Positions 36,547 to 64,000 of a stretch of 64,000 bases of DNA are shown here, piece by piece. The position numbers and the translations under genes are program-made. Source of the stretch: Hymenobacter sp. 15J16-1T3B (GTDB lineage: Bacteria; Bacteroidota; Bacteroidia; Cytophagales; Hymenobacteraceae); contig NZ_JAJFAV010000007.1 of the NCBI RefSeq assembly GCF_020711235.1, positions 62,001-126,000 of the forward strand. The letters are read 5' to 3'. The stretch's first letter is position 1, and each line of letters starts with the position of its first letter. The notes under the pieces are model-generated. The model saw nothing but the letters and a program-made list of their open reading frames with translations, searched no databases and was not told where the DNA came from.

Positions 36547-36673
36547 TCCTTAGTCCCTTCTGATTGAATTCAACCAAACCAATAACCTAAATGCTGTCGC
36601 CCAAATGGCACGCTGATGACTGATCGTTTTTGCAGCAATGAATGCTACGCGCCTAGCCTGTAGCAGTTTCTCA

Positions 36674-37123: not shown

Positions 37124-37320
37124 TGCTTATGTACAATAAGTCTTATCAAGTGCAGGATATTCCACCGTGTCCCCGTGGCTGGTTTCTAGTGTCTCCGCTA
37201 GCGCTACCACCCGAACGGCGCGGCTATGGCGCTAAGCTAGGGCCGCAGTGGAGGCCCAGTTTCCACACCCAAGCTGGGTACTAGTTACGCGGCGCTAAAC
37301 TTGAGCTAGGGTGGGTGTAT

Positions 37321-37938: not shown

Positions 37939-37959
37939 AGCTTTCAATATTATAAATCC

Positions 37960-40278
37960 TCACGGCCGCGCCGCCATCGTAAATACCAGTTCCCCGCCAT
38001 TCATAATGGCCTCGTGCGCGAGGAAGGGCCGGGTGAGTTTCTGGCCGTTGAGGCGGGCTTCCTTCACGTAGACATTTTTGTCGCTCTGGTTTTTCACCGT
38101 GATGCGGAAGGTCTTGCCGTTTTCCAGGTTCAGCGTGGCACCGTGGACGGCGGGGCTGCCCAGGGCGTACTCCGGGGAACCGGGCGCGACGGGGTAGAAG
38201 CCCAGGGCGGAGAAGATGTACCAGGCCGACATCTGCCCGCAGTCGTCGTTGCCGCCGAGGCCGTCAGGGGTGGGGCGGTACATCTTGGGCAGGATCATGC
38301 GCACGCGGGCCTGCGTTTTGTAGGGCTGGTCGGTCCAGTTGTAGAGGTAGGCCACGTGGTGGGCGGGCTCGTTGCCGTGCACGTAGTTGCCGATGATGCC
38401 CTCGCGGGTGATGTCCTCGGTTTCGGCGAAAAACTTGTCGGGCAGGTGCATGGTGAACAGCGAGTCGAGGTGCTCGGTGAAGCGGCGGTTGCCGCCCATT
38501 TTGGCAATGAGTGCCGTGGGGTCCTGGGGCACGTAGAGGCTGTAGTTCCAGGCGTTGCCCTCGATGAAGCCCTGGTTATGTGTGCTCAGCACGTCGAAAT
38601 TCGGGCGGAAAGAGCCGTCGGCGAGGCGGGGGCGCATGAAGCCGATGCGCTGGTCGTAGACGTTCTGCCAGTTCTGGGCGCGCTTGCTGAACTCCTGGTA
38701 GATATCCTGCCGATTGAGCTTCTGGGCCATCTGGGCAATGCACCAGTCGTCGTAGGCGTATTCGAGGGTTTTGGACACCGAGGAGCCGCTTTTGTCCTCG
38801 GGCACGTAGCCCAGCTGCAGGTAGTAGCCGATGCCGTCGTAGCGGGCGGTGCGGGCGGTGGTCACGCAGGCGTCCAGGGCTTTGTTGGCGTCGAAGGGGG
38901 CGTTGCCTTTGAGCACGGCGTCGGCCACCACGGGCACCGAGTGGTAGCCGATCATGCACCAGTTTTCGTTGGCGTAGTGGCTCCAGACCGGCAGCATGTG
39001 CTCGGCGCTTTGGTCGAAGTGGGCCAGCATGGAGCGCACCATGTCGGCGTTGCGCCGGGGCTGGAGCACGTTGAAGAGCGGGTGCAGGGCGCGGTAGGTG
39101 TCCCAGAGCGAGAAGGTGGTGTAGTTGGTGAAGCCGTCCGCCTTGTGGTTGTTTTGGTCGAGGCCGCGGTACTGGCCGTCGGCGTCCATGTAGGTCGTCG
39201 GGCTCAGGAAGGCGTGGTACATGGCCGTGTAGAAGTTTTCCTTGTCTTCGCGCTTCGGCGACTCGATGACCACCTTGCTCAGCTCCTGCTGCCAGAGCTG
39301 CTGGGCCTGCGCCTTCACTTTGTCAAAATCCCAGCCGGGGGCTTCGGTGCGCAGGTTCTGCAGAGCGCCGGCGGTGTTCACCGGCGAAAGGGCAAATTTG
39401 ACTTTGACCTTCTCCCCGGCCGCGGCGGTCTTGAAGTTGAAGTACATGCGCAGCTGCTCGCCGGCCAGGTCGGGGAAGTTCTTGGTCTGGTCGAACTTGC
39501 CCCAGAAGCCGCGGTAGGCTTGTTTTTTGGCGTAGTTGCGGCTGCCGTAGTCGGTGAAGGGCCGCGAGAAGCTCATGGCGAAGTACACCGTGCGGGTGCG
39601 GGCCCAGCCGTTAGTCTGGCGGTAGCCAGTGACCAGCTTGTCGTTTTCCACCCGCACGAAGGTCCACACGTTCTTATCCGGGTAGTTGTAGATGCCGTGC
39701 ATCAAATCCAGGATGAGGTGGGCCTGGTCGGTGGCCTGCGGGAAGGTGTACTGGTGCATGCCCACCCGGTTCGTCGCCGTCAGTTCGGCCAGGATGCCGT
39801 GGTCGTCGAGCTTCACCCGGTAGTAGCCGGGCTCGGCCACTTCGGTGGCGTGGCTAAAGCGGGAGCGGTAGCCGCGCTCGGGCTGGGTGGCGGTGCCGGG
39901 ATTGAGCTGCAACGGGCCCGTGGTGGGCATCACGAGAAAGTCGCCGAGGTCGGAGTGACCGGTGCCGCTGAAGTGGGTGTGGCTGAAGCCGACGATGGTA
40001 GGGTCTTGGTACTGGTAGCCGGCGCAGTACTTGTACACGTCGGGGTTGTACTTGCCGTCTTGCTCGTAGCTGAGCGTATCGGTATCGGGCGAGAGCTGCA
40101 CCATGCCGAAGGGCACCGTGGCACCCGGAAACGTGTGCCCCATCTTGGCCGTGCCCACGATAGGCTTGGCGTACTGCACGAGGCTTTCGGTGGGCTTAGC
40201 GGCTTTCGGCTGGTTTTTCTGGGCGAAAGCAGAACTGGCGGCAAGGAAAAGGGCGGCGAGGTGGAGCGGGCGGAGCAT
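37960..40278 (-). CDS. GH92 alpha-1,2-mannosidase-type glycoside hydrolase
   Basis: A 772-residue secreted enzyme. Starting at the ATG at 40278 gives a signal peptide (MLRPLHLAALFLAASSAFAQ). The N-terminal beta-sandwich has VGTAKMGHTFPGATVPFGMV and VGFSHTHFSGTGHSDLGDFL. The (alpha/alpha)6 domain contains FSLWDTYRALHPL, a GNEPAHHVAYLYNW segment and the family hallmark GNDDCGQMSAWYIFSALGFY, which holds catalytic acids and calcium ligands. GH92 enzymes remove alpha-mannose from N-glycans or mannans with inversion, in a calcium-dependent way, in the periplasm or at the surface. A TACCTTGC-like box on the minus strand (about 40313-40320) lies 36 bases upstream. Confidence 0.95.
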   Translation of the reverse strand: MLRPLHLAALFLAASSAFAQKNQPKAAKPTESLVQYAKPIVGTAKMGHTFPGATVPFGMVQLSPDTDTLSYEQDGKYNPDVYKYCAGYQYQDPTIVGFSHTHFSGTGHSDLGDFLVMPTTGPLQLNPGTATQPERGYRSRFSHATEVAEPGYYRVKLDDHGILAELTATNRVGMHQYTFPQATDQAHLILDLMHGIYNYPDKNVWTFVRVENDKLVTGYRQTNGWARTRTVYFAMSFSRPFTDYGSRNYAKKQAYRGFWGKFDQTKNFPDLAGEQLRMYFNFKTAAAGEKVKVKFALSPVNTAGALQNLRTEAPGWDFDKVKAQAQQLWQQELSKVVIESPKREDKENFYTAMYHAFLSPTTYMDADGQYRGLDQNNHKADGFTNYTTFSLWDTYRALHPLFNVLQPRRNADMVRSMLAHFDQSAEHMLPVWSHYANENWCMIGYHSVPVVADAVLKGNAPFDANKALDACVTTARTARYDGIGYYLQLGYVPEDKSGSSVSKTLEYAYDDWCIAQMAQKLNRQDIYQEFSKRAQNWQNVYDQRIGFMRPRLADGSFRPNFDVLSTHNQGFIEGNAWNYSLYVPQDPTALIAKMGGNRRFTEHLDSLFTMHLPDKFFAETEDITREGIIGNYVHGNEPAHHVAYLYNWTDQPYKTQARVRMILPKMYRPTPDGLGGNDDCGQMSAWYIFSALGFYPVAPGSPEYALGSPAVHGATLNLENGKTFRITVKNQSDKNVYVKEARLNGQKLTRPFLAHEAIMNGGELVFTMAARP

Positions 40279-51542: not shown

Positions 51543-52206
51543 TTTCCCGGTTCAAATTGCGCTGCTCGACGACCACAAACTGTTCCGCCAGGGCATTGCC
51601 TTCATCCTGAAAACCCTGCCCTACGTGGAATCGGTGGTCGACACCGACACGCTGCCCGAGCTGCAGGCGGCCTTCCGTCAGCGCCTGCCCGACGTGCTGC
51701 TGCTCGATCTGCAGATGCCCGGCATCGACGGGCCCGAGGTGGCCCAGCGCCTGCTGCAGGAATACCCCGACCTGAAAATCATCGTGCTGTCGATGTTTTC
51801 GGCCGACAAGTTCATCACCCAGATGATCAAGCTCGGCGCCCGCAGCTACCTGCCCAAGGACGTGGACCAGCAGCAGCTGCGCCGCGCCATCGAGGAGGTG
51901 CTCACCACCGGCTACCACTTCACCGACCAAGTATCCCGGGCCCTGATGCTGAGCGTGCAGCAGCCCGCCCGCCCCGCCGCCGAGCCCGCCGTACGCAAGG
52001 ACATCGTGCAGCTCACCCCGCGCGAAAAGGAAATCCTGCAGCTGATCTGCGAGGGCCACACCGCCGCCGAAATTGCCGAGCGCCTGTTCATCAGCCGCCG
52101 CACCGTGGAGGGCCACCGCCAAAACCTGCTGGAGAAAACCCAGGCCCCTAACGCCGCCGGGCTGGTGCAGTACGCCGCCAAGCACGGCCTGATGGAGAAG
52201 AGCTAG
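51529..52206 (+). CDS. NarL/FixJ-family response regulator
   Basis: A 225-residue regulator, partner of the preceding kinase. The receiver has LLDDHKLFRQGIAFI, phosphoacceptor in DVLLLDLQMPGIDG and Lys in GARSYLPKDVDQQQL. The LuxR helix-turn-helix (about 160-225) reads LTPREKEILQLICEGHTAAE and RLFISRRTVEGHRQNLLEK. The operon converges on the seven-gene cluster at 52.4-64 kb, so a regulatory link is possible but not shown. Confidence 0.95.
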   Translation: MPNIDFPVQIALLDDHKLFRQGIAFILKTLPYVESVVDTDTLPELQAAFRQRLPDVLLLDLQMPGIDGPEVAQRLLQEYPDLKIIVLSMFSADKFITQMIKLGARSYLPKDVDQQQLRRAIEEVLTTGYHFTDQVSRALMLSVQQPARPAAEPAVRKDIVQLTPREKEILQLICEGHTAAEIAERLFISRRTVEGHRQNLLEKTQAPNAAGLVQYAAKHGLMEKS

Positions 52207-52233
52207 CGGCTGATACAGACCCGAACTAGGACC

Positions 52234-52342
52234 GTCATGTCGAGCGAAGTCGAGACATCTCGCGTGCTGACGTGGGATAGTAGAATCATGTTCAACGAGC
52301 AGATTACTATCCAGCGAGATGTCTCGACAAGCTCGACATGAG
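52234..52342. repeat. Palindromic intergenic repeat
   Basis: Left arm CATGTCGAGCGAAGTCGAGA then CATCTCGC; right arm is the inverted copy (GCGAGATGTCTCGACAAG, CTCGACATGA). An extra GTGCTGACGTG follows in the left arm before both copies share GGATAGTA. The GCTGACGT-GGATA segment also occurs in the element at 11639-11795, so both belong to one family. It separates the response regulator from the convergent cluster. Confidence 0.85.
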
Positions 52343-52436
52343 GTTCTGGTTGGCTGTTCATCGAAGCGGTTGAGCTGCTTCGACTGCGTGGACGCCAAAG
52401 CAGGCAGGGCGGCCTTTTGACAAACGCCCACCCAAC

Positions 52437-55400
52437 TCACGCCTTGGCCTTGCGGCTGGCGGCGGGCTTTTTCGGGGCGGCGCGCTTGAGCTGCAGACGC
52501 TGGGCCTTGTCGCCCAGGGGCAGCACCACCACCGGGCCTTTCTGGCGCAGCCAGTCGGTGGTGAGCGTCGAGCCGTCGGCAAACTGCGCCTCGTACTGCA
52601 CCTCGAAGTTCTCGGCCGCGTCCTTGCTCCAGGCCGTGCTGAAGGTGTGGGCCACGGCGTTGGTGTAGGTCCACTTGGGGAGCACCGCGCCGTTGTAGCG
52701 CACCTGCAGGGCCACACGGTTGACTTGCGCGAAGTCCGCGTCGAGGCTGATGGCCGTCTGGAACTTGCGCTGCGTGGTGGTCTGGGCGAAGAAGCGCTGG
52801 TCCTTGGTCGGGTTCTGGAAGCCCAGGCTGGTGAGCGTGGGCAGGCCGCCGTGGGGCTCGATAAACCAGTTCACGTTCTGGTTTAGCTCGTAGGTGTTCG
52901 AGAAGCTCTGCACCGAGCTGACCTCAAAGTTGCCCACGTCGTCGGGCGACACCTGCTTGACCTGCTCGATGATGGCCTGCGTGGCCAAGAACTCGGCCGT
53001 CTGCTCGGCCCAGGCGCGGGCCGCGTCGAGCATTTCCTGGGTAATGCCGTTGCCGGGCTGGTCGGGCACCAGGATGATGTTGGTGCTCTGCGAATTGTGG
53101 AACGACTCGGACACGGCCACCACGATGCGCTTTTCGTTGCCCCACACGCTGGCAATGGCGTTGTACACGTCTTCCAGTACTTCGGCAATGTCGCCCACGA
53201 ACTTGATGACGCCCTGCGCCACCCATTCCAGCCAGTGCTCCACGTCCTGCAGGAATTCCCAGATCAGGTTCTTCACCGCGTCGTAGATGATGCCCGGAAT
53301 GTCCTTGAGCTGCTGCACCGTCACGTTCAGGTCGACGCCCGGGATGGTGAATTTCACGTCGCCGAACTCGAATTTGGTTTCCTGCAGGCGCAGGTAGGCG
53401 CCCTTGGTGTTGGCCCCGAAGGCCAGGTCCACGTCCACGTTCACCGTCAGCGGCAGGGTGCCCAGCTTCACGTTGAACAGCTCGAAGTCGGGGTCGTTGA
53501 TGTGCACGCCGCCGCGGATGGCGAAGTCGAAGCCGGTGTTGCTGTTCAGGGTGGTTTTCACCGCCAGGTTGGCGCCCAGCTGCTCGTCGCCGGTTTGCAT
53601 CAGGAAGTCGAGCAGCAAGCCCGCGGACGACACGTCGATGGTGGTGGCCACTTCCAGGCCCAGCAGCACGGCGCGGCCGTCGAGGTAGAAGTGCGCGGGC
53701 TTGGTTTCCGTCTGGTGGGTTTTCGGGTCCGTCACCTGCACCGGGTAGGTCGACATGCTGAAGTACGGCCCGCGCGAGCGGTCCTCGTTGCCGGTCAGCT
53801 CCAGGTAGTTCGGGATGAGCACGATGGGGTCGACCAAGCGGGCTTCGGCGGCGAAGCCCTTGTTGGGCACGATTTCCAGCTTCACGGCTAGGTGCACCAT
53901 GAAGAAGTCGAGCTGCCCGGCCAGCAGCACGCCCGCGTTGAAGGTGAGGCCCGAGCTGGGCGGGCCCAGCACCACGCTGCCCCCGCCGGGCGGCATGCAG
54001 TAGTAGAACTGCGGCTCCAGCGCCACGCGGATGCGCCCGTCGTGCTCGGTGTGCAGCTCGTAGTGGGTGATGACGTTGCTGCTCGGGAAGTCGGTGATAA
54101 ACCACACGCCGGGCTCGTGCAGGGCCGTTTCGCCCACCACCAGCAGAGAGCTGAGCAGCGAGAAGTCGTACTTGGTCGACTTGGTGGCCGCGTTGAAGGC
54201 GTCGTTGATGCCCTTGAAGTCCTTGGCGTTGAGGGCCGCGGCGGCCGTGGCCGGCAGGTAGAAAGTATCGGTGCCGCTCACGCCCACTTCGGCCAGCAGT
54301 TCGTCGAGCCAGACCGGGGGCTTGTCCTCGCCCTCGGTGATGACGCCCACCACCGTGTCGGCAATCTGCTTGAGCGTCACGTCGCTGATGGAGCCGGCAA
54401 ACAGGCTCTTGGCCGGGTCGCCCGAGTCGAAGAAGAAGGCAATGGACGAGTCGTAGGTGGTGCCGTAGGCCGAGAGGTCAATCTGCGCCGCGAAGCCCAG
54501 GCTCGGAATGCCCTCGAAGTCGATGCCGACCACCACGACCATGTTCGAGAGGGTCACCGGCCCGAAGGTGATGCTGCCCAGCATCGACGCGCTCAGGAAG
54601 GCAGCGTTCGGGGTGAGCACGAAGCCCACGCCGGCGGTGAGGCAGTCGTTTTTGTTGGCCGCGGTGCACGAGGTCAGCTCCGTCGTCGAGCCGTTGCCGT
54701 CGGTGACGAGCGTGCTGATGAGGCCTTCGAGGTAGAACTGCGGCTCCCCGGCCTCCATGCGCGCCCCGATGACGCCGGCCAGCGTAGTGGTCTTGTTGAT
54801 GTTGCCCGCGATGCGCGCCTGCGCAAACGCATTCTTGGTCGGGTCCAGGCCGATGAACACGGTCAGGTCGAAGTCCAGCTCCACGCTCAGGCCCAGCAGC
54901 TGGGGCACCAGCGCCAGGTTGGGCCGCTGCTCGATGTCGAGCGACATGCTGCCGTAGAAGTAGAAGCCGGCCTTTACCGGCCCGGCCCAGGCCGGCACCT
55001 TGATGCTCGTCTGGCCCGCGCCGCCGCGGAAGCTGTTGGTGGCCGGAAACTGGAAGTGCTGCTGCATGTCGGCCGAGGTAAACACGAACACCAGGTCGTT
55101 GACCCGGAACATGGTGTCCATGCCCGAGAGCATGCTCAAGGACTCGAAAGCCGCAATTTTGGGTGCGTGCAGCTGCAGGCCGGCGGCAAAGGCCCAGTCG
55201 GCGCTGTTGCTCTGCTTGGCCACTTCCAGCACGATGTTGCCGAAGGAGGGCTGGGCCAGCACGGCGAAGGTGTAGTTGGCCGCCGACCCGCTGCCCTGCC
55301 GCTCCACGTACAGGCTGGTTTGCGGAAAGTCGATGACGGGCAGCCAGTCAGGCAGCTCCCAGCTGGCGGGCAAGAGGCCCTCGGCTATCTGCTTCACGCT

Positions 55401-56984
55401 CACCTCGAACTCCGGAATCAGGGCCGTGACCTTGAAGTTGCCGGGCGTCTGGTACTGAAAGTCGGTCTGGATGCCGAACAGCTTCATGCCGCCGATGAGG
55501 CCGCCGCCCGCCCCGCCGTCGGGGCCGCTGTCGTTTTCGATGTGCAGGTTGGCGTAGAGCACCTCGAACACCGACTGGCCGCCAAACTCGAACACCAGCG
55601 GATGGGCCGGGTCGAGGCCGGCGTAGAAGGCGTAGTGGTTTTTGGGCTGTTGGAAGCGGAAATCCACGCCCAGCTGGTTCAGGGTGATGTCGGGCAGGTT
55701 GACGGCCGTGGGCAGGTACTTGTTCACCAGCTCGCCCACCGGCAGGGTCAGCGGCGTGTTCGGCGCCAGCCCAGCCTGCACCTGGTACATGGCCGGGCGC
55801 TGGGCCGCGAAGGTGGCCGCGGCCCGCACGTTCATGTCGATGGGCGCCCCGGCCGTGGGCAGCTCCAGTTGCCCGCCCACCGCCAGGGCAATCAGACGGG
55901 AGGTCGAGTCAAAGGGGTTTTGCACGCGGGCCGTCACCGTCACGCCGTGCACCGTGGCCAAGTCGCCCAGGTCCCAGCCCGGCGCGTCCTTGGGCATGCC
56001 GATTTCCAGGGCCACCAGCACCGGCTGCAGGGAGCTGATGCCGATGCCCACGCTGAGGGTTTTCAGCTCCAGGTTGCTGCTCTGCTGGTAGGTATCGGGC
56101 AGGGACTCGTAGAGGTCGTTGGCGCCGATGAGCCGCTGAAACTCCTGGGCAAAGTCCGTGGGCGAGGGCAGCGCAATGCCCGTGAAGCGCCCGGTCAGCG
56201 ACAAAATACCCTGAGGCGCGGGGGTGAGCAGGGTGTAGAGCTCCAGCCCCTTGTTCAGGCCGAAGTCGAAGCGGGTGCCGAGCAGCAGGCCCACTTCGTT
56301 GTAGACCTCGTCGAGGCGGCACACCAGCTGGATTTCGACGTGGTTCTGCAGCAGCGGAATGTAGCTTTCCAGCGTTTTCTGAAAGCCCAGGGTGAGCCGC
56401 ATGGTGGGCACGCCCTCAAACAGCGTGAGCGGCCCCACCGCCGTGGTGTTGACGAACTGCCCGAGCACCCGCATCAGGTTGCCGAGCGTGGGGCTCAGGC
56501 TGGCCGGCACCACGCGCCCGTAGAAGTTCTGCCCCTTCACGAACGAGCCGTTTTCCAGCGTCGTGTCAACGCAGTCGACCGAGGCAAAGGCGTACAGCGG
56601 CACGTTGCCTTCTTCGATGCCCACTTCGTCGAACACGGTGCCCTGCAGCTCGGGCCAGGCAGTGGTGAAGTTCCAGCCCAGCTCCAGGTACTCCTTGAGC
56701 AGCAGTTGGGCGGCGCCGGCCTGGTCGAGGAAGAACACCATCGTCAGGCCCACGGCGGTGCGCTCGTTGAAGTCGGCGGCCACCCCGCTCACCGTCACGG
56801 TGCCGGCCTGCGCGTCGGCCACGGGCGGCTGGGCGGCGGTGAGCGTCCAGGCGGTCTGGTGCACCACCGCGGTGAGCAGGTCCGTCAGGGCGGGCGAGTC
56901 GTAGGGCGCCGGCAAGAAGGCGAAAAGCTGCGCCTGGGCGTCGTACTGCCCGGTCACGGTGGCTTGCAGGGTCGAAAAATCCAT
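52437..56984 (-). CDS. Giant beta-rich protein, DUF6603-like
   Basis: A 1515-residue protein starting MDFSTLQATVTGQYDAQAQL, without a signal peptide. Most of its length is a succession of amphipathic beta-strands (for example FAVLAQPSFGNIVLEVAKQS, LGLSVELDFDLTVFIGLD, VTLSNMVVVVGIDFEGIPSL). From memory this resembles the DUF6603 family found in bacteria and fungi, of unknown function. A helical stretch at about 1270-1330 (IIYDAVKNLIWEFLQDVEHW and GVIKFVGDIAEVLEDVYNAI) follows. A C-terminal sandwich (about 1350-1490) is shared with the partial gene at 61743. The last residues are basic (KRAAPKKPAASRKAKA). It is the last gene of a seven-gene run, 45 bases after its neighbour. Repeated beta elements recall bridge-like lipid-transfer or polymer-binding proteins; this is inference. 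Confidence 0.85.
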   Translation of the reverse strand: MDFSTLQATVTGQYDAQAQLFAFLPAPYDSPALTDLLTAVVHQTAWTLTAAQPPVADAQAGTVTVSGVAADFNERTAVGLTMVFFLDQAGAAQLLLKEYLELGWNFTTAWPELQGTVFDEVGIEEGNVPLYAFASVDCVDTTLENGSFVKGQNFYGRVVPASLSPTLGNLMRVLGQFVNTTAVGPLTLFEGVPTMRLTLGFQKTLESYIPLLQNHVEIQLVCRLDEVYNEVGLLLGTRFDFGLNKGLELYTLLTPAPQGILSLTGRFTGIALPSPTDFAQEFQRLIGANDLYESLPDTYQQSSNLELKTLSVGIGISSLQPVLVALEIGMPKDAPGWDLGDLATVHGVTVTARVQNPFDSTSRLIALAVGGQLELPTAGAPIDMNVRAAATFAAQRPAMYQVQAGLAPNTPLTLPVGELVNKYLPTAVNLPDITLNQLGVDFRFQQPKNHYAFYAGLDPAHPLVFEFGGQSVFEVLYANLHIENDSGPDGGAGGGLIGGMKLFGIQTDFQYQTPGNFKVTALIPEFEVSVKQIAEGLLPASWELPDWLPVIDFPQTSLYVERQGSGSAANYTFAVLAQPSFGNIVLEVAKQSNSADWAFAAGLQLHAPKIAAFESLSMLSGMDTMFRVNDLVFVFTSADMQQHFQFPATNSFRGGAGQTSIKVPAWAGPVKAGFYFYGSMSLDIEQRPNLALVPQLLGLSVELDFDLTVFIGLDPTKNAFAQARIAGNINKTTTLAGVIGARMEAGEPQFYLEGLISTLVTDGNGSTTELTSCTAANKNDCLTAGVGFVLTPNAAFLSASMLGSITFGPVTLSNMVVVVGIDFEGIPSLGFAAQIDLSAYGTTYDSSIAFFFDSGDPAKSLFAGSISDVTLKQIADTVVGVITEGEDKPPVWLDELLAEVGVSGTDTFYLPATAAAALNAKDFKGINDAFNAATKSTKYDFSLLSSLLVVGETALHEPGVWFITDFPSSNVITHYELHTEHDGRIRVALEPQFYYCMPPGGGSVVLGPPSSGLTFNAGVLLAGQLDFFMVHLAVKLEIVPNKGFAAEARLVDPIVLIPNYLELTGNEDRSRGPYFSMSTYPVQVTDPKTHQTETKPAHFYLDGRAVLLGLEVATTIDVSSAGLLLDFLMQTGDEQLGANLAVKTTLNSNTGFDFAIRGGVHINDPDFELFNVKLGTLPLTVNVDVDLAFGANTKGAYLRLQETKFEFGDVKFTIPGVDLNVTVQQLKDIPGIIYDAVKNLIWEFLQDVEHWLEWVAQGVIKFVGDIAEVLEDVYNAIASVWGNEKRIVVAVSESFHNSQSTNIILVPDQPGNGITQEMLDAARAWAEQTAEFLATQAIIEQVKQVSPDDVGNFEVSSVQSFSNTYELNQNVNWFIEPHGGLPTLTSLGFQNPTKDQRFFAQTTTQRKFQTAISLDADFAQVNRVALQVRYNGAVLPKWTYTNAVAHTFSTAWSKDAAENFEVQYEAQFADGSTLTTDWLRQKGPVVVLPLGDKAQRLQLKRAAPKKPAASRKAKA

Positions 56985-57029
56985 GTCGGGGGAGGAAATC
57001 AGAAGGGAAAGGAAACGGGGCCGCCGGGC

Positions 57030-58106
57030 TTAGTAATTCACCGTGACCATCAGGGGCATGTAGGCGCTGACCAGCGCGCGGTAAGGCGGGAAGGCGTCTT
57101 CCAGCTTGGCGTAGCTGCCGTCGGGCTGGGCCGTCATCAGGTCGTCGTTGTCGGTATCCTCCTCGTCCTGCACGTTGGCAATGACGGCCTGCAGCGCGCT
57201 CAGGGCCGGGCCCAGCGGCGCCGTGTGCCACTGCCAATCTTCTTGCTGGCTGTTGTAAGTGAAGGAGCCGAACACGCCCTCGAACACGTTCAGCACTTTG
57301 GCGTTGCTGACGCTGACGCCGTTGGCGGCTTTGCGGAAGAAGAAGTTGTCGGCCGTTTGCACTAGGGCCTGCTCCATGGTCATGGCCACCTCGGCGTTGT
57401 CGGCCAGGCGGTTGGGCTGCCGGGCCAGCAGTTGGGTGTAGGGCCCGCTCGCGCCGGCCAGCGGCCCGAAGGCCACGGCGCCGTTGGAGTCCGGCGTGTT
57501 CACGTCGTCGTCGAGCGGCACGTTGAAGGTGCCCATCAGCAGGCAGCCGTTGCCCTGGTTGAAGGCCGCCAGCTGCGCCAGGTTGAGGCAGGCCATGCGG
57601 ATGAGCAGGGCCTGGTACTCGCTCCACTCGGGGGCGTGAAAGATGGCTACCGGCAGAAATTTCGAGGCGCCCAGCAGCTCGAAGTAGGCCAGGAAGGGCG
57701 GCATGTCGGTCGACTGCCCGTCGAGGCGCGGAAAGCCGTAGCGCTCCTTCGGCTCGTCGGGCAGCGGGTACACCGACTGGAAGTAGTCGGTCAGACTGGT
57801 TTTGGCCGGCTGCAGCTTTTCGCTGTTCCACACGAAGCTGTACTGCTCGTTGCGGCTCAGGCCCAGCTGCGGGCTGGCCTGCTCGCGCCACTTGTTGGGT
57901 TTCTGGGCGCGGTTGTTCAGCTCGTTGATGAGCGTCGTGCCGAAGGGCGCCGCCAGGTTGTCGAAGATGCCGCAAAAGCCGATCAGGTCGGCCCCGCTGC
58001 GCTCGATGACCGTGGCCACAAACTGCACGTACTGCAGGCCGCTCGACAGCGCTTCTTTCTGGCGAAAACCGCCCAGGTTCCAGGTAATGATGTTTGCCTG
58101 CGCCAT
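57030..58106 (-). CDS. Catalytically degenerate EEP (DNase I-like) fold protein
   Basis: A 358-residue protein of the endonuclease/exonuclease/phosphatase fold: NIITWNLGGF (5-14), ADLIGFCGIFDN (39-50), YSFVWNSEKL (89-98), PPFLAYFELL (136-145), VAIFHAPEW (153-161), LLMGTFNVPLDDD (189-201) and the end SAYMPLMVTV (347-356). In active EEP enzymes these positions read LQE, GDFN and SDH. Here the Glu is G46, the GDFN Asp is T193, and the final Asp-His are A348-Y349, while N10, H157 and N195 remain. It is therefore probably not a nuclease or phosphatase; a structural or regulatory role beside the intact EEP neighbour is likely. No signal peptide. Confidence 0.85.
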   Translation of the reverse strand: MAQANIITWNLGGFRQKEALSSGLQYVQFVATVIERSGADLIGFCGIFDNLAAPFGTTLINELNNRAQKPNKWREQASPQLGLSRNEQYSFVWNSEKLQPAKTSLTDYFQSVYPLPDEPKERYGFPRLDGQSTDMPPFLAYFELLGASKFLPVAIFHAPEWSEYQALLIRMACLNLAQLAAFNQGNGCLLMGTFNVPLDDDVNTPDSNGAVAFGPLAGASGPYTQLLARQPNRLADNAEVAMTMEQALVQTADNFFFRKAANGVSVSNAKVLNVFEGVFGSFTYNSQQEDWQWHTAPLGPALSALQAVIANVQDEEDTDNDDLMTAQPDGSYAKLEDAFPPYRALVSAYMPLMVTVNY

Positions 58107-58145
58107 GATGCACTAGCTTGGGAAAGAGAGAAGAAACGGGGGCGG

Positions 58146-59081
58146 CTAGCTGATTTGCAGCAGCGTGGCGGTGTGGTCCGACATGCGCCGGGCCAGGCCC
58201 GCGGCCAGGGCGCCCGGGCCCGAATCGAGGGTGGCGGTACTGGCCACCGGCACCGGCACGATGAGCCCCGGCGGCACGGCCAGGCCCGTCACGTCGGAGT
58301 ACCAGTAGTCGTAGAGGCTTCCGCTGTAGGTGGTGCCCACGCCCGCGGCGCCGGCCGGGTAGCTGCCGCCCGGCGCGCTGGTCGAGTAGGCCGTGTAGCC
58401 CCCGCGCGGCGAAATGGGCGCCACGTTGAAGTCGCCGCCGATGTAGCGGGCCACCGGCGCGGGCGCCACCGCCGGCAGCGTCCCGATGCCCTGGCCCATC
58501 ATGGCCATCATGCCGCCCAGCTGCCCGGCCACGATGGTGCGGTTGGCCAGAAACGTGTAGAGGTTGTGCAGGAAGCCCACGGCGATGTTGCCGGCCGGCG
58601 TCGTCACCACGCAGTACACCAGCCCGCGGAAGTCGGCCGAGGCCGTGGGCGGCAGGCGCAGGTTGTTGAGGGCGGCGGCCGTGGCGGCGCGCTGGTGCAG
58701 CAGCTGCACGCCGCCGCGGCCCGTTTGAAACAAAATGCGGCCCACCGTTACCAGCGGGTAGTTGGTGTTGCGGGCCAGGTAGATGTACTCCGGGCCGTGG
58801 GCCAGCGCCGTGATGCCGCAGGCCACGTTGCCGATGGGCACCAGCGCCGGCGCCGGCCCGGCCACCATGCCGCCCAGCACCTCGCAGGAGGTGGCCAGCG
58901 CCGCGCGCGACGAGCGGTTGTTGGTAATTTCGGTGAAGCCCGCCACTGCAATGGCCGGCAGCGGCGCGGGCAAGCCCCCGTTGATGATGGCGAAGCCGCC
59001 AAAGGGCGAGTTGTACGCGTCGCGCCGGGGCCGGGAGCCGCCGCCGTAGCGCCGCATGTTCTGGTGGAAGAGGAAAGACAT
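58146..59081 (-). CDS. EEP (DNase I-like) fold protein with catalytic motifs kept
   Basis: A 311-residue protein, MSFLFHQNMRRYGGGSRPRR, with no signal peptide. The EEP motifs are in order: GGFAIINGG (28-36), AGFTEITNN with E51, VGFLHNLY with H172, YIGGDFNVAP with D217 and N219, and the C-terminal MSDHTATLLQ with S301-D302-H303. These are the metal and catalytic residues of the fold, so a phosphodiesterase or nuclease activity is possible. The substrate is unknown. The sequence between motifs is unusually rich in Ala and Gly and divergent from ExoA or DNase I. It lies 39 bases upstream of the degenerate EEP gene. Confidence 0.82.
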   Translation of the reverse strand: MSFLFHQNMRRYGGGSRPRRDAYNSPFGGFAIINGGLPAPLPAIAVAGFTEITNNRSSRAALATSCEVLGGMVAGPAPALVPIGNVACGITALAHGPEYIYLARNTNYPLVTVGRILFQTGRGGVQLLHQRAATAAALNNLRLPPTASADFRGLVYCVVTTPAGNIAVGFLHNLYTFLANRTIVAGQLGGMMAMMGQGIGTLPAVAPAPVARYIGGDFNVAPISPRGGYTAYSTSAPGGSYPAGAAGVGTTYSGSLYDYWYSDVTGLAVPPGLIVPVPVASTATLDSGPGALAAGLARRMSDHTATLLQIS

Positions 59082-59133
59082 ACCTAGCCGCGTGAGAAGT
59101 AGAAAAGCCGGATGAGCCGCGCTGCCGCGGAGC

Positions 59134-59757
59134 CTAGGAGCGCACCCACTTGAAAGTGCGCTGGTAGGTGTAGGCCGCTTGCGCGTCGAACTGCACCTGG
59201 GCGGTGATGGCGCCGAGCCGGGCCCACACCGTGAGGCGGTACACCACCTCCACCACGCCCGCCGTGGCGTCGCCGCCGAAGTAGGCCTTGAAGAGGTTCA
59301 CGGCCGAGGGCAGCATGTTGCTGATGTTGAACACGGCCGTCTGGCTGCCGCTCAACGAGGGCGTGGTTTGCACCGTGCCGCTGACGGTGCCGTCCGCGTC
59401 GGCGTAGTGCAGCGTGGCCTGGCTGGGGCTGACGCCCTCCTGCACCACGTCGATGAAAGGCATGGCCTGGTAGGTGGGCGCGGCCACGCCCTGCTGCTTG
59501 AGCTGGGCCTGCACCCCGCGGATAACCTCGGGCGGCACCACCAGCATGGTCGTGAGCTGGCACTGGGCCGAAATCAGCTGCTTGGCCGTATCGAGGTACT
59601 CGGTGAGGCGAAACTGCGGCACGCTGCTCTGCACGGCCAGCGTGGGCACCGGCACGATGTAGAAGATGTTGCTGTCGTCCTGGTCCTGAAAATAGGTCCA
59701 GTTGGCGCCGGCCAAGGGGTAGGTACCTTGGCTGGCGGCATTGAGGATACCGGCCAT
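59134..59757 (-). CDS. Beta-rich protein sharing a module with the large upstream gene
   Basis: A 207-residue protein starting MAGILNAASQGTYPLAGANW. Residues 20-55 (YFQDQDDSNIFYIVPVPTLA, then QFRLTEY) and 137-199 (GSQTAVFNISNMLPSAVNLF and VVEVVYRLTVWARLGAITAQ) are visible modules. The second half aligns by eye with visible residues 24-82 of the partial gene at 61743 (GSNGAIFQLPLDADQMKTFK, then FEVQYAIQVPSLMPAVKVAV). So it is a short stand-alone version of that module. No known family and no signal. It lies 10 bases downstream of the toroid gene, so it is co-transcribed. Confidence 0.78.
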   Translation of the reverse strand: MAGILNAASQGTYPLAGANWTYFQDQDDSNIFYIVPVPTLAVQSSVPQFRLTEYLDTAKQLISAQCQLTTMLVVPPEVIRGVQAQLKQQGVAAPTYQAMPFIDVVQEGVSPSQATLHYADADGTVSGTVQTTPSLSGSQTAVFNISNMLPSAVNLFKAYFGGDATAGVVEVVYRLTVWARLGAITAQVQFDAQAAYTYQRTFKWVRS

Positions 59758-59767
59758 GTCGGGGGCG

Positions 59768-60640
59768 TTAGGAAAGAGACTGGAAATAGCGGCGGCGCAG
59801 TTCGCGGGCCAGCCCGAGCACCGGCGCCGTCCACACGATGTCGCCGCTCACGTCGGAGCAGAGCGGGGCCGGGATTTCGGGGCCGGTGGCGGCGGCCAGC
59901 TGGGGCAAGCCGGCCACGGCGGCCAGGGCGGGCTGCAGCTCGTCGGCGCCGGCGGCCACGGCGTGGCGCAGGGCGTGCAGCCACTCGCCGGGGTGCGGGT
60001 AGTAGGGCGTGAAGTGCTGCACCTGCTGCGGGTGCCGGGCCAGCAGGTGCGCCGCGGTGTTGATCATGGTGCAGGCTTCGGCGTAGCCGGGGGCGGCTTT
60101 CAGCCCGGCGCGGGCCAGCAGGGCCACCGCGTTGGTATTCACGCAGCAGTCGATGGGATTGGGCGCGTCGGCAGTGGTAAACCAGGTCAGGAACACGCCC
60201 TCGGGCTGCCACTCGTGGCGCAGGTGGTGGCGCAGCGCCCCGGTGGCGCGGTGGGGCTGCAGGTAGTTATCGGCAATGTATTCCAGCGCCTCGGCCGGCC
60301 AGTGCCCGGCCCGCACCAGCTCCAGCCCGATGACGCAGGTGTCGTCGGCGTCGGCGTAGAGGGCCGTGCGCAGCCAGAACGGCGGGTACTGCGGGGGCCA
60401 GAAGGCGAAGCAGTACGGGTAAATCTGCGGGTAAGCGCTGCGCAGCAGAAAGGCCGTGGCCAGGCGCCGGGCCTCGTCCAGCTCGGGGTGGGTAGGCAGG
60501 CCGGCCAGCTCGCGCAGCACCAGGCCGCTCACGAAGCAGTTGCGGTCCTCCACCTCGCCGTAGCTGGTGCGCACCGTGGACAGGAAGGCTCCGCCCGGCG
60601 ACATCTGCCGGCGAATGGCCGTAATCAGCGCCTCATTCAT
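59768..60640 (-). CDS. Alpha/alpha-toroid protein with DxDD motif (terpenoid-cyclase-like)
   Basis: A 290-residue helical protein from the ATG at 60640 (MNEALITAIRRQMSPGGAFL). It has EDRNCFVSGLVLREL (31-45), LYADADDTCVIGLELV (94-109) and NPIDCCVNTNAVALLARAG (161-179). D97-A-D99-D100-T matches the DxDD signature of class II terpenoid cyclases and the prenyltransferase/squalene-oxidase-repeat toroids. The protein is much shorter than squalene-hopene cyclase, so a single toroid is likely. A catalytic role is uncertain. It overlaps the upstream gene by 8 bases, which indicates translational coupling with the prenyltransferase-like protein. Confidence 0.75.
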   Translation of the reverse strand: MNEALITAIRRQMSPGGAFLSTVRTSYGEVEDRNCFVSGLVLRELAGLPTHPELDEARRLATAFLLRSAYPQIYPYCFAFWPPQYPPFWLRTALYADADDTCVIGLELVRAGHWPAEALEYIADNYLQPHRATGALRHHLRHEWQPEGVFLTWFTTADAPNPIDCCVNTNAVALLARAGLKAAPGYAEACTMINTAAHLLARHPQQVQHFTPYYPHPGEWLHALRHAVAAGADELQPALAAVAGLPQLAAATGPEIPAPLCSDVSGDIVWTAPVLGLARELRRRYFQSLS

Positions 60641-61628
60641 AGTCCGCAGCCGCCGGCGGGCGCAGGCCGATGTGGGCAATGGCCGGGGTACCCGCCCCCA
60701 CCGTCACGCCGAACATGCCGTGGTGGTGCCAGGGTCCGGCGTGCGTGAGCGTGGGCTGGCTCAGCTCCAGGTAGTGGCCCATGTCGCAGCCGCGCCGCTC
60801 GAAGTAGCGGGCCAGCTTGCGTCGGGCGTTAGCGTCGGAGCCAAAGAGTGTGTCGGCGAAGGTGTAAAAGGAAAACATGCGCGGCGCGGCCTCGGCGGCC
60901 GGCACGGTGTAGCTGAAGCCGAACACCGGCCCGGGCAGTTGCTGGTGCATGGGCCGGCCGTAGGCCTCCTGGAAGGCGTCGGCCACCACTTTATGGCTGC
61001 CGTCGAGCCCTTGCGGGTGCATCAGCGCGGGCAGCTCCCAGGGCTTGAGGCCTTCGACGCGGAAGTAGAATTCCAGCTCGCCGGTGGCCGGGTACCAGCC
61101 AATCATCTGCACGGTGATGGGGCGGCCCGCCACGCCCACCGGGCGGCGCAGGCGGGGGTTCAGGTAAGCCAGGGCCGCGGCCTGCCCGGCCGGCGGCACC
61201 TCAGCGTAAATTTTGTAGCTCGACTCGCGAGCCGAGTGACGCACGCCCACCCAAGCCCCGTAGCGCAGCCCGCCGGGCGCCTGCACCTGCGCCAGCACCG
61301 CCCGCAACGGGTCATCGGCCAGGGAGCGGCCCAGCAGCGGCTCCACCACGGCGCAGGCCTGGGCCAGGCGCGCGGCGGGGTTGTCGCGGGCCGGGGCTAC
61401 TTCCAGGGTGTAGCGGATGCTGTCGTTGAGCGTGGTGCAGGTGAATTCCAGGGGGTAGCCGCCGTCGGTGAGCAGGCTGGCGCCCCAACGGGCGGGGTCG
61501 GCCGTATCGGTCAGCAGCGGCTGCAGCAGGTGCGGCAGGGCGGCGTCGAGGCGGGGCGCGGCGGCCGGAAAGTGACGGCGCGCCACTTCCAGGCCCCGTA
61601 AGGCGGGGGCAGCAAGGGTACGAGACAT
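60633..61628 (-). CDS. Probable ABBA-fold (DMATS-like) aromatic prenyltransferase
   Basis: A 331-residue protein starting MSRTLAAPALRGLEVARRHF, without a signal. Features that recall DMATS/ABBA prenyltransferases: GGYPLEFTCTTLNDSIRYTL (about 56-75; compare PxEFS...vRf), RESSYKIYAEVPP (about 133-145; compare the KxY pattern), ITVQMIGWYPATGELEFYFR, and a C-terminal FGVTVGAGTPAIAHIGLRPP matching the final antiparallel strands. These enzymes attach isoprenyl groups to aromatic rings such as tryptophan. The assignment is by pattern only. A coupled class-II-cyclase-like gene downstream is consistent with terpenoid chemistry. Confidence 0.6.
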   Translation of the reverse strand: MSRTLAAPALRGLEVARRHFPAAAPRLDAALPHLLQPLLTDTADPARWGASLLTDGGYPLEFTCTTLNDSIRYTLEVAPARDNPAARLAQACAVVEPLLGRSLADDPLRAVLAQVQAPGGLRYGAWVGVRHSARESSYKIYAEVPPAGQAAALAYLNPRLRRPVGVAGRPITVQMIGWYPATGELEFYFRVEGLKPWELPALMHPQGLDGSHKVVADAFQEAYGRPMHQQLPGPVFGFSYTVPAAEAAPRMFSFYTFADTLFGSDANARRKLARYFERRGCDMGHYLELSQPTLTHAGPWHHHGMFGVTVGAGTPAIAHIGLRPPAAADYE

Positions 61629-61681
61629 GCGAGAAAAGGGCGCGACGGGTGAGGAAAGCGCCGGCGCGGGGGCCGGCCGTG

Positions 61682-61731
61682 GGCGCCCCGGCCGCCCGGC
61701 TGCCGCAGCAGCCGGCGCGGGCCGGGGCGCC
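61682..61731 (-). terminator. Hairpin inside the gene cluster
   Basis: GGCGCCCCGGCC pairs with GGCCGGGGCGCC; a second stem (CCGGCTG with CAGCCGG) lies inside. It sits in the 114-base gap after the first large gene and before the prenyltransferase-like gene. It could cut expression of the six downstream genes relative to the first, or act as a stable mRNA end. No T-run. Confidence 0.5.
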
Positions 61732-61742
61732 GCCGGGGTGGG

Positions 61743-64000
61743 TTAGGCCTCCACGTCGGCCGCGCGGGCGGCGCGGGCGGCGGGCGCCGCGGGGGCTTCG
61801 GCGGCCGATTTGGGCAGCGTCAGCTGGGTGCCCTGCACGGTGCCGGCGGCCGTTTTGGTGCCGCCGTTGTACACGTAGTCGGCTTCCCAGTCGAATTCCA
61901 GGCCCGTGTAGCCCACCGGCAGGTTCGGCACCTGGAAATAGGCCGAGTACGACTTCTGCTGCACCGCGTCCAGGCCGATGGCCTGCTGGTCGATGCTGTC
62001 TTCGTAAGTGGTTTTGGTGCCGGCTTTGGCCGTGCCCGGCTCCGTGTACCGCACCGCCGTGATGCGCACGTTGATCAGGTTCAGCTCGTTCCAGTCCACA
62101 ATGGTCGGGTCGGCCCCGATCATCACAAAGGTCTGGGTGGCCGTTAGCACGAAGAAGGTGGCGTTCTGCGGGTTGAAGTTGAAGGGCCCGATGTTGATCT
62201 GCTTCATCTTCTTGGTCAGCACCGAGGCCGTAATCTGCAGCGGGGCCAGCTTGGAGTTGGCAAACAGGTTCACGTCCTGCTCGCTCGGGTCCGGGTCGTC
62301 CTCCACGGCCAGGCCGCGGGCGGCCACGCCGTTGGTCTTGGCCTGGGGCTGGTCGACGGGCGCGGCGTAGCGGGCGGTTTGCACTTCCCACTGCGGCGCG
62401 CCCAGCTCGCCGGCCGCAAAGTCGGTGGCGCTGGCCAGCGGGGCCGTGGCGAGCAGGTTGTCGAAGTCATCGGCCACGCCGCGGGCGGCCCCACCGCCGG
62501 TTTTGGGCGCCGGGAAGACGAGCTGAATCGGGCTCTTGGCCGTGGGCCGGGGCAGCTTTTCGCTGGCCGGGATGTTCGGGAAGTACGGATCCTCGGTGTA
62601 GTAGATGTTCACGCGGGCCTTGTACACGCCCGTCATGTCCACCACCACCGACACCGACTGCGCGAGGTCGGGCTCGGCCAGGCGCACCCACTGCCCGTTC
62701 TGCGACTTGGCGTCGGAGGTGTAGGGGTTGGCCTTGGCCTCGGGCTTGAAGATGTAGGTGATGGTGTAGGTGTAGTCCGTCTCGATGGGCGCCGCCGTCA
62801 GGCTCGACACCACGTGCGAGGTGTTTTCCGCGTCGAGGGTGAAGGGCAGCAGCACCGGCGGGGCCTGCGGAATGTCGAACACGAAGTTGACGATGAGCTT
62901 GTCGACCAGCGAAGCCGATTCGCTGTTGCCGAAGAAGATGCTCGCGTCGAAGGTCACGTTCAGAATGCCGATGTCGGCCAGCGTGATGGTGTAGTTCGTC
63001 GCGTCGATGTCCTCGGCGGTGCCCGTCACCGTGGGCTGGGCGGAGTCCTCGTACACCGCGCTGTACTCCAGCGTGTACACGCCACCGGCCAGCTCGTCCC
63101 AGTCGGCCTCCCAGGTGTAGGGCGTGTTGTCGGTGAAGGTGTGGGTGCGGTCGGCCTTGTCGTTGAGCGTGGGGTACTTGATGGTGACTTCCAGGCGCTT
63201 GAGCTTCTGCTTGTCGCTCATGTACACGCTGTCCTTGTCGGGCTCGATGCTCGGGTTGAGCGACTGTTCGCTGCCCACGAAGTTGCACTTGGGCGTCACC
63301 TGCGTCACAAATTTGCGCTTGTCCACCACGGGTTCCAAGGATTCAATCTGCGCCACGGTCAGGCCCAGATCGGCAAAGCTGGGCAGCACCGTCTGGGGCA
63401 TGAGCCGCCACAGAATGGTTTGATTCTCTTCGTACGTTTCCTTGAACGAAGATATCTGCGAGGCGCTGAACGACTGCGTGCCCCCGGCGCTGTTTTGCAG
63501 GGCCAGGGCCGCCTTCACGGCATCGGCCACCCGCGCTTCCACCACCGACTGCCCCCAGGCGCGCAGGCTCTGCATCAGCGCCTCGGGCACGTTGGGGTTG
63601 ATTTTGTCGACCACAATCTTGGCCGCGTTCGAGGCCGTGAGCTGCTTGCTGATGTCGTAGGTGTAGGTCGACGACGAGGCCCAGTGCGTGTGCTCGTGCG
63701 AGGTCACCTGGTACTGCAGGGCAATGCTGGAGTCGAACGACACGGCCACTTTCACGGCGGGCATCAGCGAGGGCACCTGAATGGCGTACTGCACCTCGAA
63801 GGGGCTGCCGCCCTGCTTGCCGAGCACCTGCTTGAAGGTCTTCATCTGGTCCGCGTCGAGCGGCAGCTGGAAGATGGCGCCGTTGCTGCCGAAGTCGGTG
63901 CCGGCGGCCTGCATGCCGGTGGTGCCGCCCTGCCCGTCCGGGTAGGTTAGGTTCACGATGGTGCCCGGCTGGAAGGGCAGGGTCAGGAAGCGCGGCTTCA
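61743..64000 (-). CDS. Large beta-rich protein, N-terminus outside the window
   Basis: At least 752 visible residues; the frame runs off the right edge with KPRFLTLPFQPGTIVNLTYP, so the start is beyond 64000 and a GTG at 63956 is not the true start. Numbered from that GTG, residues 24-82 align with the 207-residue gene at 59134. Residues about 160-300 (SSFKETYEENQTILWRL and a beta-sandwich with TFTDNTPYTWEADWDEL) align with the C-terminus of the 1515-residue gene at 52437 (QSFSNTYELNQNVNWFIEP). Two further beta domains follow (VLLPFTLDAENTSHVV; LAPLQITASVLTKKM). The end is Ala/Arg-rich. Function unknown; it appears to be the first or an early gene of the cluster. Confidence 0.8.
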   Translation of the reverse strand, partial: KPRFLTLPFQPGTIVNLTYPDGQGGTTGMQAAGTDFGSNGAIFQLPLDADQMKTFKQVLGKQGGSPFEVQYAIQVPSLMPAVKVAVSFDSSIALQYQVTSHEHTHWASSSTYTYDISKQLTASNAAKIVVDKINPNVPEALMQSLRAWGQSVVEARVADAVKAALALQNSAGGTQSFSASQISSFKETYEENQTILWRLMPQTVLPSFADLGLTVAQIESLEPVVDKRKFVTQVTPKCNFVGSEQSLNPSIEPDKDSVYMSDKQKLKRLEVTIKYPTLNDKADRTHTFTDNTPYTWEADWDELAGGVYTLEYSAVYEDSAQPTVTGTAEDIDATNYTITLADIGILNVTFDASIFFGNSESASLVDKLIVNFVFDIPQAPPVLLPFTLDAENTSHVVSSLTAAPIETDYTYTITYIFKPEAKANPYTSDAKSQNGQWVRLAEPDLAQSVSVVVDMTGVYKARVNIYYTEDPYFPNIPASEKLPRPTAKSPIQLVFPAPKTGGGAARGVADDFDNLLATAPLASATDFAAGELGAPQWEVQTARYAAPVDQPQAKTNGVAARGLAVEDDPDPSEQDVNLFANSKLAPLQITASVLTKKMKQINIGPFNFNPQNATFFVLTATQTFVMIGADPTIVDWNELNLINVRITAVRYTEPGTAKAGTKTTYEDSIDQQAIGLDAVQQKSYSAYFQVPNLPVGYTGLEFDWEADYVYNGGTKTAAGTVQGTQLTLPKSAAEAPAAPAARAARAADVEA

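What the first reader, a model, noticed from the sequence alone, without database searches (positions are those of the whole stretch)
52437..64000. A seven-gene minus-strand cluster of unknown function
Gaps between consecutive genes are 114, -8, 10, 52, 39 and 45 bases, so at least six are one transcript. The proteins are two giant beta-rich proteins, a short beta-rich protein, two EEP-fold proteins, a DxDD toroid and a DMATS-like protein. None has a signal peptide and none is a phage, secretion-system or known biosynthetic core gene that I recognise. The mix of terpenoid-type enzymes with nuclease-fold and structural proteins is not a described system to my knowledge. It may be a biosynthetic or inter-microbial conflict locus (inference).
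Basis: partly seen in the sequence, partly recalled or inferred. Interest (0 to 1): 0.88.

Follow-up and report, generated by a model that had tools for sequence, protein, structure and literature searches.

The report
Travelling seven-gene prenyltransferase block
A block of seven uncharacterised genes has moved as one unit between unrelated bacteria; it seems to pair an enzyme that attaches a terpene group with a likely ring-closing partner and several giant proteins of unknown job, so it may mark an undescribed kind of biosynthetic or competition system.

Summary
Seven co-directional genes with the stated gaps are present; gene G ends just right of the window and the block stops there. The same seven genes, in the same order with similar spacing, lie in Hymenobacter negativus and on a Calothrix plasmid, where their composition looks foreign. 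Two of seven congeners show the empty site, so the window holds a ~12.5 kb insertion. Substitution patterns fit purifying selection in all seven genes. F has the ABBA (DMATS-type) prenyltransferase fold by prediction. E carries a DxDDT motif; its poor model resembles single-domain class II terpene cyclases without significance. C keeps, and B has lost, EEP catalytic residues; the Herpetosiphon B, found with A only, keeps them. D is a paralogue of G's N-terminus; A's tail resembles G's middle. G-F-E recur on an Azospirillum plasmid behind MakB-like, MakA-like and a third gene. Best reading (inference, 0.45): a mobile cassette that prenylates an acceptor and cyclises the chain, with G/A/D as substrate or carrier and B-C as an EEP pair, used in microbial competition. 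No product, substrate or activity is shown.

The parts
61743..64000 (-). Gene G, first gene of the block; 840-aa beta-rich protein, start at window-equivalent 64265 (outside the window). Residues 5-188 resemble D, residues 195-415 the C-terminal tail of A
   Evidence: hhalign prob 98.3; prob 94.1
60633..61628 (-). Gene F, 331 aa, ABBA (PT-barrel) prenyltransferase-like
   Evidence: AF2 model pLDDT 68.8, pTM 0.75; Foldseek best hits CymD and DMATS1, E 3.8e-8 and 4.1e-8, prob 1.00; relatives in H. negativus, Calothrix, Azospirillum
59768..60640 (-). Gene E, 290 aa, putative single-domain class II terpene-cyclase-like toroid
   Evidence: DADDT invariant in 4 of 4 aligned relatives; low-confidence all-helical model, pLDDT 46.7, whose five best PDB matches are drimenol synthase, E 0.32-0.71, not significant
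60338..60352 (-). DADDT motif of E (residues 97-101), candidate general-acid motif
59134..59757 (-). Gene D, 207 aa, stand-alone paralogue of the N-terminal domain of G
58146..59081 (-). Gene C, 311 aa, EEP-like phosphoesterase with E, GDFN and SDH motifs in 3 of 3 blocks
   Evidence: motif-based, no profile match
57030..58106 (-). Gene B, 358 aa, EEP-family protein; at the places where the Herpetosiphon B has E, D of GDFN and DH of SDH, the B of 3 of 3 blocks has G, T and A/G-Y
52437..56984 (-). Gene A, 1515-aa beta-rich giant, last gene of the block
52206..64000 (.). Insertion of about 12.5 kb (runs to window-equivalent ~64724-64742) that is absent from two congeners
52236..52340 (.). Palindrome (arms of 28 and 27 bases) just inside the left junction, between the convergent genes; REP-like, possibly a terminator
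   Evidence: role is inference

Best explanation
A horizontally mobile seven-gene operon. Shown by comparison: it is one unit, an insertion in this lineage, compositionally foreign in Calothrix, with substitution patterns of purifying selection; F has the ABBA prenyltransferase fold by prediction; C has and B lacks the EEP catalytic residues; G, D and A share domains. Inferred: F transfers a prenyl group from a host prenyl diphosphate to an acceptor; E, a single-domain class II cyclase, protonates and cyclises the prenyl chain through its DxDDT motif (as the monodomain cyclase MstE does with its prenylated substrate); G, the gene that stands with F-E in every place found, is the acceptor or the carrier of the hydrophobic product; A and D extend this scaffold; C is the active metal-dependent phosphoesterase and B its inactive partner. 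The outcome is a prenylated, ring-closed compound or a terpene-modified protein complex, most likely used against other organisms.
For: Same order and similar spacing in three genomes of two phyla; empty site in two congeners; Calothrix block GC 0.52 against 0.41 upstream. F: AF2 model, Foldseek E 3.8e-8 to CymD, weak TIGR03429 DMATS match for the Calothrix copy, E 0.018; a 2011 survey describes PT-barrel proteins as exclusive to microbial secondary-metabolic prenyltransferases with aromatic substrates (PMC3227686, passages). E: DADDT and NP[IV]DC invariant in 4 of 4; the five best fold matches are drimenol synthase chains, MstE at rank 18 (none significant). G-F-E together in 4 of 4 places where E was found with confidence (window). 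B/C residues. Mak-like genes before G-F-E in Azospirillum: MakA model 430 bits (cut-off 320), MakB 408 (cut-off 240).
Against: E's model is poor (pLDDT 46.7; the tool warns that such models give meaningless matches) and E has no match to a cyclase profile or PDB sequence. F rests on a three-sequence alignment and only two of its five models exceed pLDDT 60 (68.8, 65.4, 51.5, 49.0, 34.2); one basic position that I recall as part of the DMATS diphosphate site seems to be E186, and the site was not aligned residue by residue. No prenyl diphosphate synthase, scaffold-making enzyme or oxidase was recognised in the block, and no exporter: the neighbouring efflux operon is separate, its AcrB-like gene having a relative of 88% or more in 7 of 8 genomes of the genus, own included. 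C and B show no profile similarity to each other. The conflict role rests mainly on one Azospirillum plasmid; PF05791 was found in 0 of 4 genomes with the block or the B-A pair, though that search also passed its cut-off in 0 of 14 control genomes, so its sensitivity is unproven.
Confidence: 0.45

Rival explanations
1. A competition (toxin-like) complex: A, G and D form a large delivery or assembly scaffold, C (with B) is a nuclease or phosphoesterase effector, and F-E only lipidate or accompany it.
For: G-F-E follow MakB-like, MakA-like and a third gene on AZO_p5; an EEP gene directly before an A-like giant, without F or E beside it, on Herpetosiphon pHAU01 and on Azospirillum AZO_p2 (Herpetosiphon is called predatory in the title of PMC3368417, listing only); A-like proteins differ in their C-terminal parts; a GH108 gene next to an A-like gene in H. 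tibetensis and one a few genes away in Mycetohabitans.
Against: No hydrophobic N-terminus and no toxin-family profile match in the block; no PADLOC match at E <= 0.1; PF05791 in 0 of 4 genomes (control without a match over its cut-off); the tail exchange may be ordinary domain shuffling.
Confidence: 0.25
2. A purely biosynthetic cluster for a small meroterpenoid-like molecule, with A, G and D as soluble carriers or storage proteins for the product.
For: F fold, E motif and non-significant fold matches to drimenol synthase and MstE; EEP enzymes include phosphatases that could remove a phosphate (general knowledge).
Against: No scaffold enzyme or tailoring oxidase recognised; most of the coding length would be accessory; giant carriers are unusual for such clusters (general knowledge).
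Confidence: 0.2
3. E and F have lost catalysis and serve as binding or structural modules, as B appears to have done.
For: B differs from the Herpetosiphon B at four EEP residues in 3 of 3 blocks; F's prenyl-diphosphate site is not verified; E186-x-Y188 stands in one F repeat where I recall K-x-Y in DMATS (for the F residues).
Against: DADDT of E and K139-x-Y141 of F are invariant in 4 of 4 down to about 30% identity; substitution patterns of purifying selection.
Confidence: 0.1

Closest known systems
[quoted passage not shown]
   Same: Single-domain class II cyclase that cyclises an already prenylated acceptor (PMC9401909 and PMC9128629, passages only); among E's fold matches at rank 18, E 2.8 (6sbe); its DxDD motif is recalled
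   Different: No sequence similarity found; E's model is weak; the original MstE paper was not held, so the rest of its cluster was not compared
Drimenol synthase AsDMS (HAD fused to a class II beta domain)
   Same: The five best fold matches of E; DxDTT motif of its beta domain (PMC9128629, passages) resembles DADDT
   Different: E is 290 aa and no HAD domain was recognised in it; matches not significant (E 0.32-0.71)
ABBA / PT-barrel prenyltransferases (CymD, DMATS1, NphB)
   Same: Predicted fold of F: five strand pairs separated by helices, Foldseek E 3.8e-8, prob 1.00
   Different: 12-19% identity in the listed rows; profile match far below cut-off
Mak tripartite pore-forming toxin operon (makDCBAE)
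   Same: MakB-like, MakA-like and a third, weakly MakA-like gene stand before G-F-E in Azospirillum AZO_p5
   Different: No such gene was recognised in the window block; MakC and MakD were not compared with it (PMC8617504, passages, calls them accessory)
MnuA-type / EEP phosphoesterases
   Same: B family (31 bits in the window, 87.7 bits in Herpetosiphon)
   Different: Below the 185-bit cut-off; B of the three full blocks lacks catalytic residues; C only by motif

Membership tests
ABBA (PT-barrel) prenyltransferases | Five repeats of helices and a strand pair forming a ten-stranded barrel | tested here: met
   Best AF2 model shows five strand pairs separated by one or two helices (mean pLDDT 68.8, pTM 0.75; the other four models 65.4 to 34.2); the 50 listed Foldseek rows are all prenyltransferases by title, 77 of 361 matches at E <= 0.001
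ABBA (PT-barrel) prenyltransferases | Sequence match to a DMATS or NphB profile | tested here: not met
   No such Pfam match for F; TIGR03429 14.3 bits for the Calothrix copy, cut-off 163.85
ABBA (PT-barrel) prenyltransferases | Basic residues that bind the prenyl diphosphate | tested here: inconclusive
   R72, R87, R130 and K139 invariant in 4 of 4, but E186 stands where I recall a lysine in DMATS; no structural residue alignment available
Class II terpene cyclases | DxDD-type general-acid motif | tested here: met
   DADDT invariant in 4 of 4
Class II terpene cyclases | Helical toroid fold with the motif in the cavity | tested here: inconclusive
   Model pLDDT 46.7, pTM 0.46; best matches drimenol synthase at E 0.32-0.71, 0 of 151 matches at E <= 0.001
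Class II terpene cyclases | Profile match (PF13243) or PDB cyclase sequence match | tested here: not met
   No match in the own genome to PF13243 at E <= 0.001; 0 PDB sequences at E <= 10
EEP phosphoesterases (gene C) | Catalytic E, GDFN and SDH motifs | tested here: met
   Present in 3 of 3
EEP phosphoesterases (gene C) | Profile match PF03372 | tested here: not met
   Not among the 6 matches in the own genome up to E 10; B is among them at E 0.019
EEP phosphoesterases (gene B) | Family profile match plus catalytic residues | tested here: not met
   Family match weak; four catalytic positions differ in 3 of 3 blocks, kept in Herpetosiphon
Known anti-phage defence or phage module | PADLOC or PHROGs match | tested here: not met
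   0 of 7 proteins in PADLOC; one chance-level PHROG match of G, E 0.082
Tripartite alpha-pore-forming toxin operon | HBL/Mak-family genes in the block | tested here: not met
   None recognised in the seven proteins; PF05791 in 0 of 4 genomes (weak control). Met only for the Azospirillum neighbourhood
Described biosynthetic gene cluster | Product or annotated cluster in print | tested here: inconclusive
   Eight keyword searches of the held open-access library; I saw no description among the listed rows. Listings were capped, and subscription papers and cluster databases were not searched

The most novel reading that the evidence does not exclude
A new kind of system in which an ABBA prenyltransferase and a class II cyclase put a cyclic terpene on a protein scaffold (G, with D and A), so that a giant soluble complex gains a membrane-seeking group; the modification module G-F-E is interchangeable, paired in some bacteria with a catalytic/inactive EEP pair and in others with a Mak-like pore former.
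Probability: 0.15. Interest if true: 0.92.

Novelty: new variant of a known kind. Interest (0 to 1): 0.66.

Why it matters
If the reading holds, it extends the pairing 'prenylate, then cyclise with a single-domain class II cyclase' to a mobile operon found in Bacteroidota and Cyanobacteriota, with an acceptor that is probably not made by a classical scaffold enzyme, and links such chemistry to pore-forming-protein loci. Even without a mechanism, a conserved seven-gene unit, most of whose proteins match no profile library with confidence, and with a clear empty site in congeners, is a clean subject for knock-out and expression.

Tried and rejected
Phage or prophage origin: not supported. No PHROG match beyond chance; pattern-based scans of viral contigs found no relative of A or E (they start from short peptides and can miss relatives); no phage record matches the Herpetosiphon A at E <= 0.1.

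RND efflux operon as part of the block: rejected. A terminator-like stem separates it; it is not annotated beside the Calothrix block; no ORF in the H. negativus flanks held matched it; two congeners keep it without the block.

Transposon with recognisable ends: boundaries were mapped, but no target duplication or terminal inverted repeat was seen; the longest exact direct match between the ends is 11 bases, taken as chance.

B and C as recent duplicates: no profile-profile similarity (prob 0.6).

PF13243 in Hymenobacteraceae: 3 of 60 genomes, weak matches, not compared with E. Rows dropped before counts: a third E match in the family search (G474, 70 residues with stops; that genome has no A) and chance-level plasmid rows for E (Variovorax, E 0.2), F (three Streptomyces clavuligerus records, E 0.7) and G (Klebsiella, E 0.9). 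Foldseek against viral models for F: 0 at E <= 0.001, best 1.6e-3. A recalled Bacteroidota promoter pattern had no exact match in L002.

Full report
WHAT IS THERE. Seven minus-strand genes fill window 52437-64000 and a little beyond. In transcription order they are G (840 aa; 61743 to window-equivalent 64265), F (331), E (290 from the start shared with its relatives), D (207), C (311), B (358) and A (1515). The next gene upstream of G ends 752 bases away, with a 13-pair stem and T run between, and belongs to an OEP/AcrB/HlyD efflux operon. To the left lies a convergent response regulator. So the cluster is complete at seven genes.

IT TRAVELS AS A UNIT. A protein search of 72,556 plasmid records with A found Calothrix sp. 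NIES-4101 plasmid3, 58% identical over 98% of A; the record holds seven genes of matching size and order, each of which aligns to its counterpart. A scan of genome contigs found a third copy in Hymenobacter negativus BT442. Identities to the window, G to A, are 65/74/68/72/71/60/70% for H. negativus and 54/51/61/58/67/50/59% for Calothrix. The six gaps are 114/-8/10/52/39/45 (window), 85/3/11/51/30/63 (Calothrix) and 98/-8/5/50/49/68 (H. negativus) (starts of E in the window and of F, C and A in H. negativus set by alignment). Between window and H. negativus the nonsynonymous distance is 0.18-0.30 and the synonymous 0.60-1.01 in 7 of 7 genes; third positions are strongly GC-rich, so the ratio is rough, but it fits purifying selection on each gene.

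IT IS MOBILE AND RARE. The efflux and two-component genes that flank the block are adjacent in two congeners, G298 and G297: the flanks align at 80-93% identity, with 246 and 125 bases between them where the window has about 12.5 kb. The flanking kinase had a close match in only these 2 of 7 congeners, so the site in the other five is unknown. Outside the seven genes the insert has only about 230 bases on the left and 460-480 on the right, too little for a usual integrase or transposase, and no clear end repeats. In Calothrix the block has GC 0.52 and third-position GC 0.50-0.64; the 9 kb before it has GC 0.41 and one gene there 0.27 at third positions, but the integrase-family gene nearest the block has 0.48 and 0.50, so it may have come along. 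Transposase and integrase genes stand on both sides of the Calothrix block. Matches: F in 1 of 296 genomes of the phylum sample (the own genome); A in 1 of 8 genomes of the genus (own); E in 3 of 204 family genomes, one of them a 70-residue match with stops that I set aside; A in 1 of 386 Cyanobacteriota (the Calothrix genome itself) and 1 of 201 Chloroflexota (Herpetosiphon itself). The genome-contig scan starts from short conserved peptides and may miss relatives.

PARTIAL SETS. Herpetosiphon aurantiacus plasmid pHAU01 has B and A; F and E were not among its annotated neighbours. Azospirillum lipoferum 4B has, on plasmid AZO_p5, G, F and E in the block's order (27, 30 and 32% identity to the window), followed by a Tn3 element that runs into the end of E, which is where D-C-B-A would follow. 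Before G stand, in order of transcription, a MakB-like gene (408 bits, cut-off 240), a MakA-like gene (430 bits, cut-off 320) and a third gene that reaches only 77 bits against the MakA model. On AZO_p2 the same strain has an EEP gene followed by a 3380-aa A-like protein, behind another large gene. Distant A-like proteins occur on plasmids of H. tibetensis, Priestia, Mycetohabitans, Streptantibioticus and, in helical repeats only, Deinococcus. Four genes of an eight-gene cluster of Pararhizobium qamdonense match the G profile (E 4.8e-11 to 5e-8), and a G-like fragment lies among transposases in Bradyrhizobium.

THE PROTEINS. F: the best of five AF2 models, from three sequences (pLDDT 68.8, pTM 0.75; the others 65.4, 51.5, 49.0, 34.2), shows five strand pairs separated by one or two helices, the layout of the PT barrel; Foldseek ranks CymD and DMATS1 first (E 3.8e-8 and 4.1e-8), and the 50 listed rows are all prenyltransferases by title. 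The 2011 survey PMC3227686 (passages) calls the fold exclusive to microbial secondary-metabolic prenyltransferases with aromatic substrates at that time. E: DADDT and NP[IV]DC are invariant in 4 of 4; a QxxDGSF start, typical of such toroids (recalled), is clear only in the Azospirillum protein. Its model is poor; still, the five best PDB matches are drimenol synthase chains (E 0.32-0.71) and MstE is at rank 18 (E 2.8); none is significant. I treat 'class II cyclase' as likely, not shown. C has E, GDFN and SDH in 3 of 3; B has G, T and A/G-Y at the matching places in 3 of 3, while the Herpetosiphon B has E, D and DH. C has no match to PF03372 up to E 10, where B has E 0.019, and no profile similarity to B, so its family rests on motifs. 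D matches the start of G (hhalign probability 98.3) and the tail of A matches G 195-415 (94.1). No Pfam, NCBIfam, PADLOC or PHROGs family explains A, D or G (for NCBIfam, G was searched as the window's 751-residue part).

HOW IT MOST LIKELY WORKS. The constant core is G-F-E: these three stand together in 4 of 4 places where E was found with confidence (window, H. negativus, Calothrix, Azospirillum AZO_p5). F and E suggest 'prenylate, then cyclise', the order known for MstE, which closes a geranylgeranylated dihydroxybenzoate (PMC9401909, passage; substrate name also in the title of 6sbe). No enzyme that would make an acceptor was recognised in the block, so the acceptor is a host metabolite or a protein of the block, G being the first candidate. 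A, D and G, related by shared domains, would form a soluble scaffold. C is the likely active phosphoesterase and B its inactive partner. The place beside Mak-like pore formers in Azospirillum, the mobility and the rarity point to use in microbial competition. All of this paragraph beyond the cited calls is inference.

VERDICT. I call it a new variant of a known kind (prenyltransferase plus single-domain class II cyclase), with a smaller chance that it is something categorically new. Eight keyword searches of the held open-access library showed no description among their listed rows.

Noticed in passing
L025:12479-20283 (Azospirillum lipoferum 4B AZO_p5): MakB-like, MakA-like and a third, weakly similar gene stand before G-F-E homologues; a Tn3 element runs into the end of E.
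   Followed up: partly
L033:16722-33786 (Pararhizobium qamdonense p2): Eight adjacent hypothetical genes, four matching the G profile and one with a Cys-peptidase-like GTCVPT stretch (resemblance recalled), form an unexplained cluster.
   Followed up: partly
L007, L008, L010, L027, L028, L029, L030: A-like giants of distant bacteria end in amphipathic helical repeats of about 26 residues by eye (..LK.AGY...VA.AL...F..); similar repeats occur in Deinococcus plasmid proteins.
   Followed up: no
L008:13242-18620 and L029:3653-9500: A GH108 lysozyme-like gene lies next to the A-like gene in H. tibetensis and a few genes away from it in Mycetohabitans.
   Followed up: no
window 52236-52340: A palindrome with arms of 28 and 27 bases between the block and the convergent regulator; looks like a REP element.
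   Followed up: no
window 36001-38000: A stretch with GC 0.46 in a window where most 2-kb stretches lie between 0.60 and 0.72.
   Followed up: no
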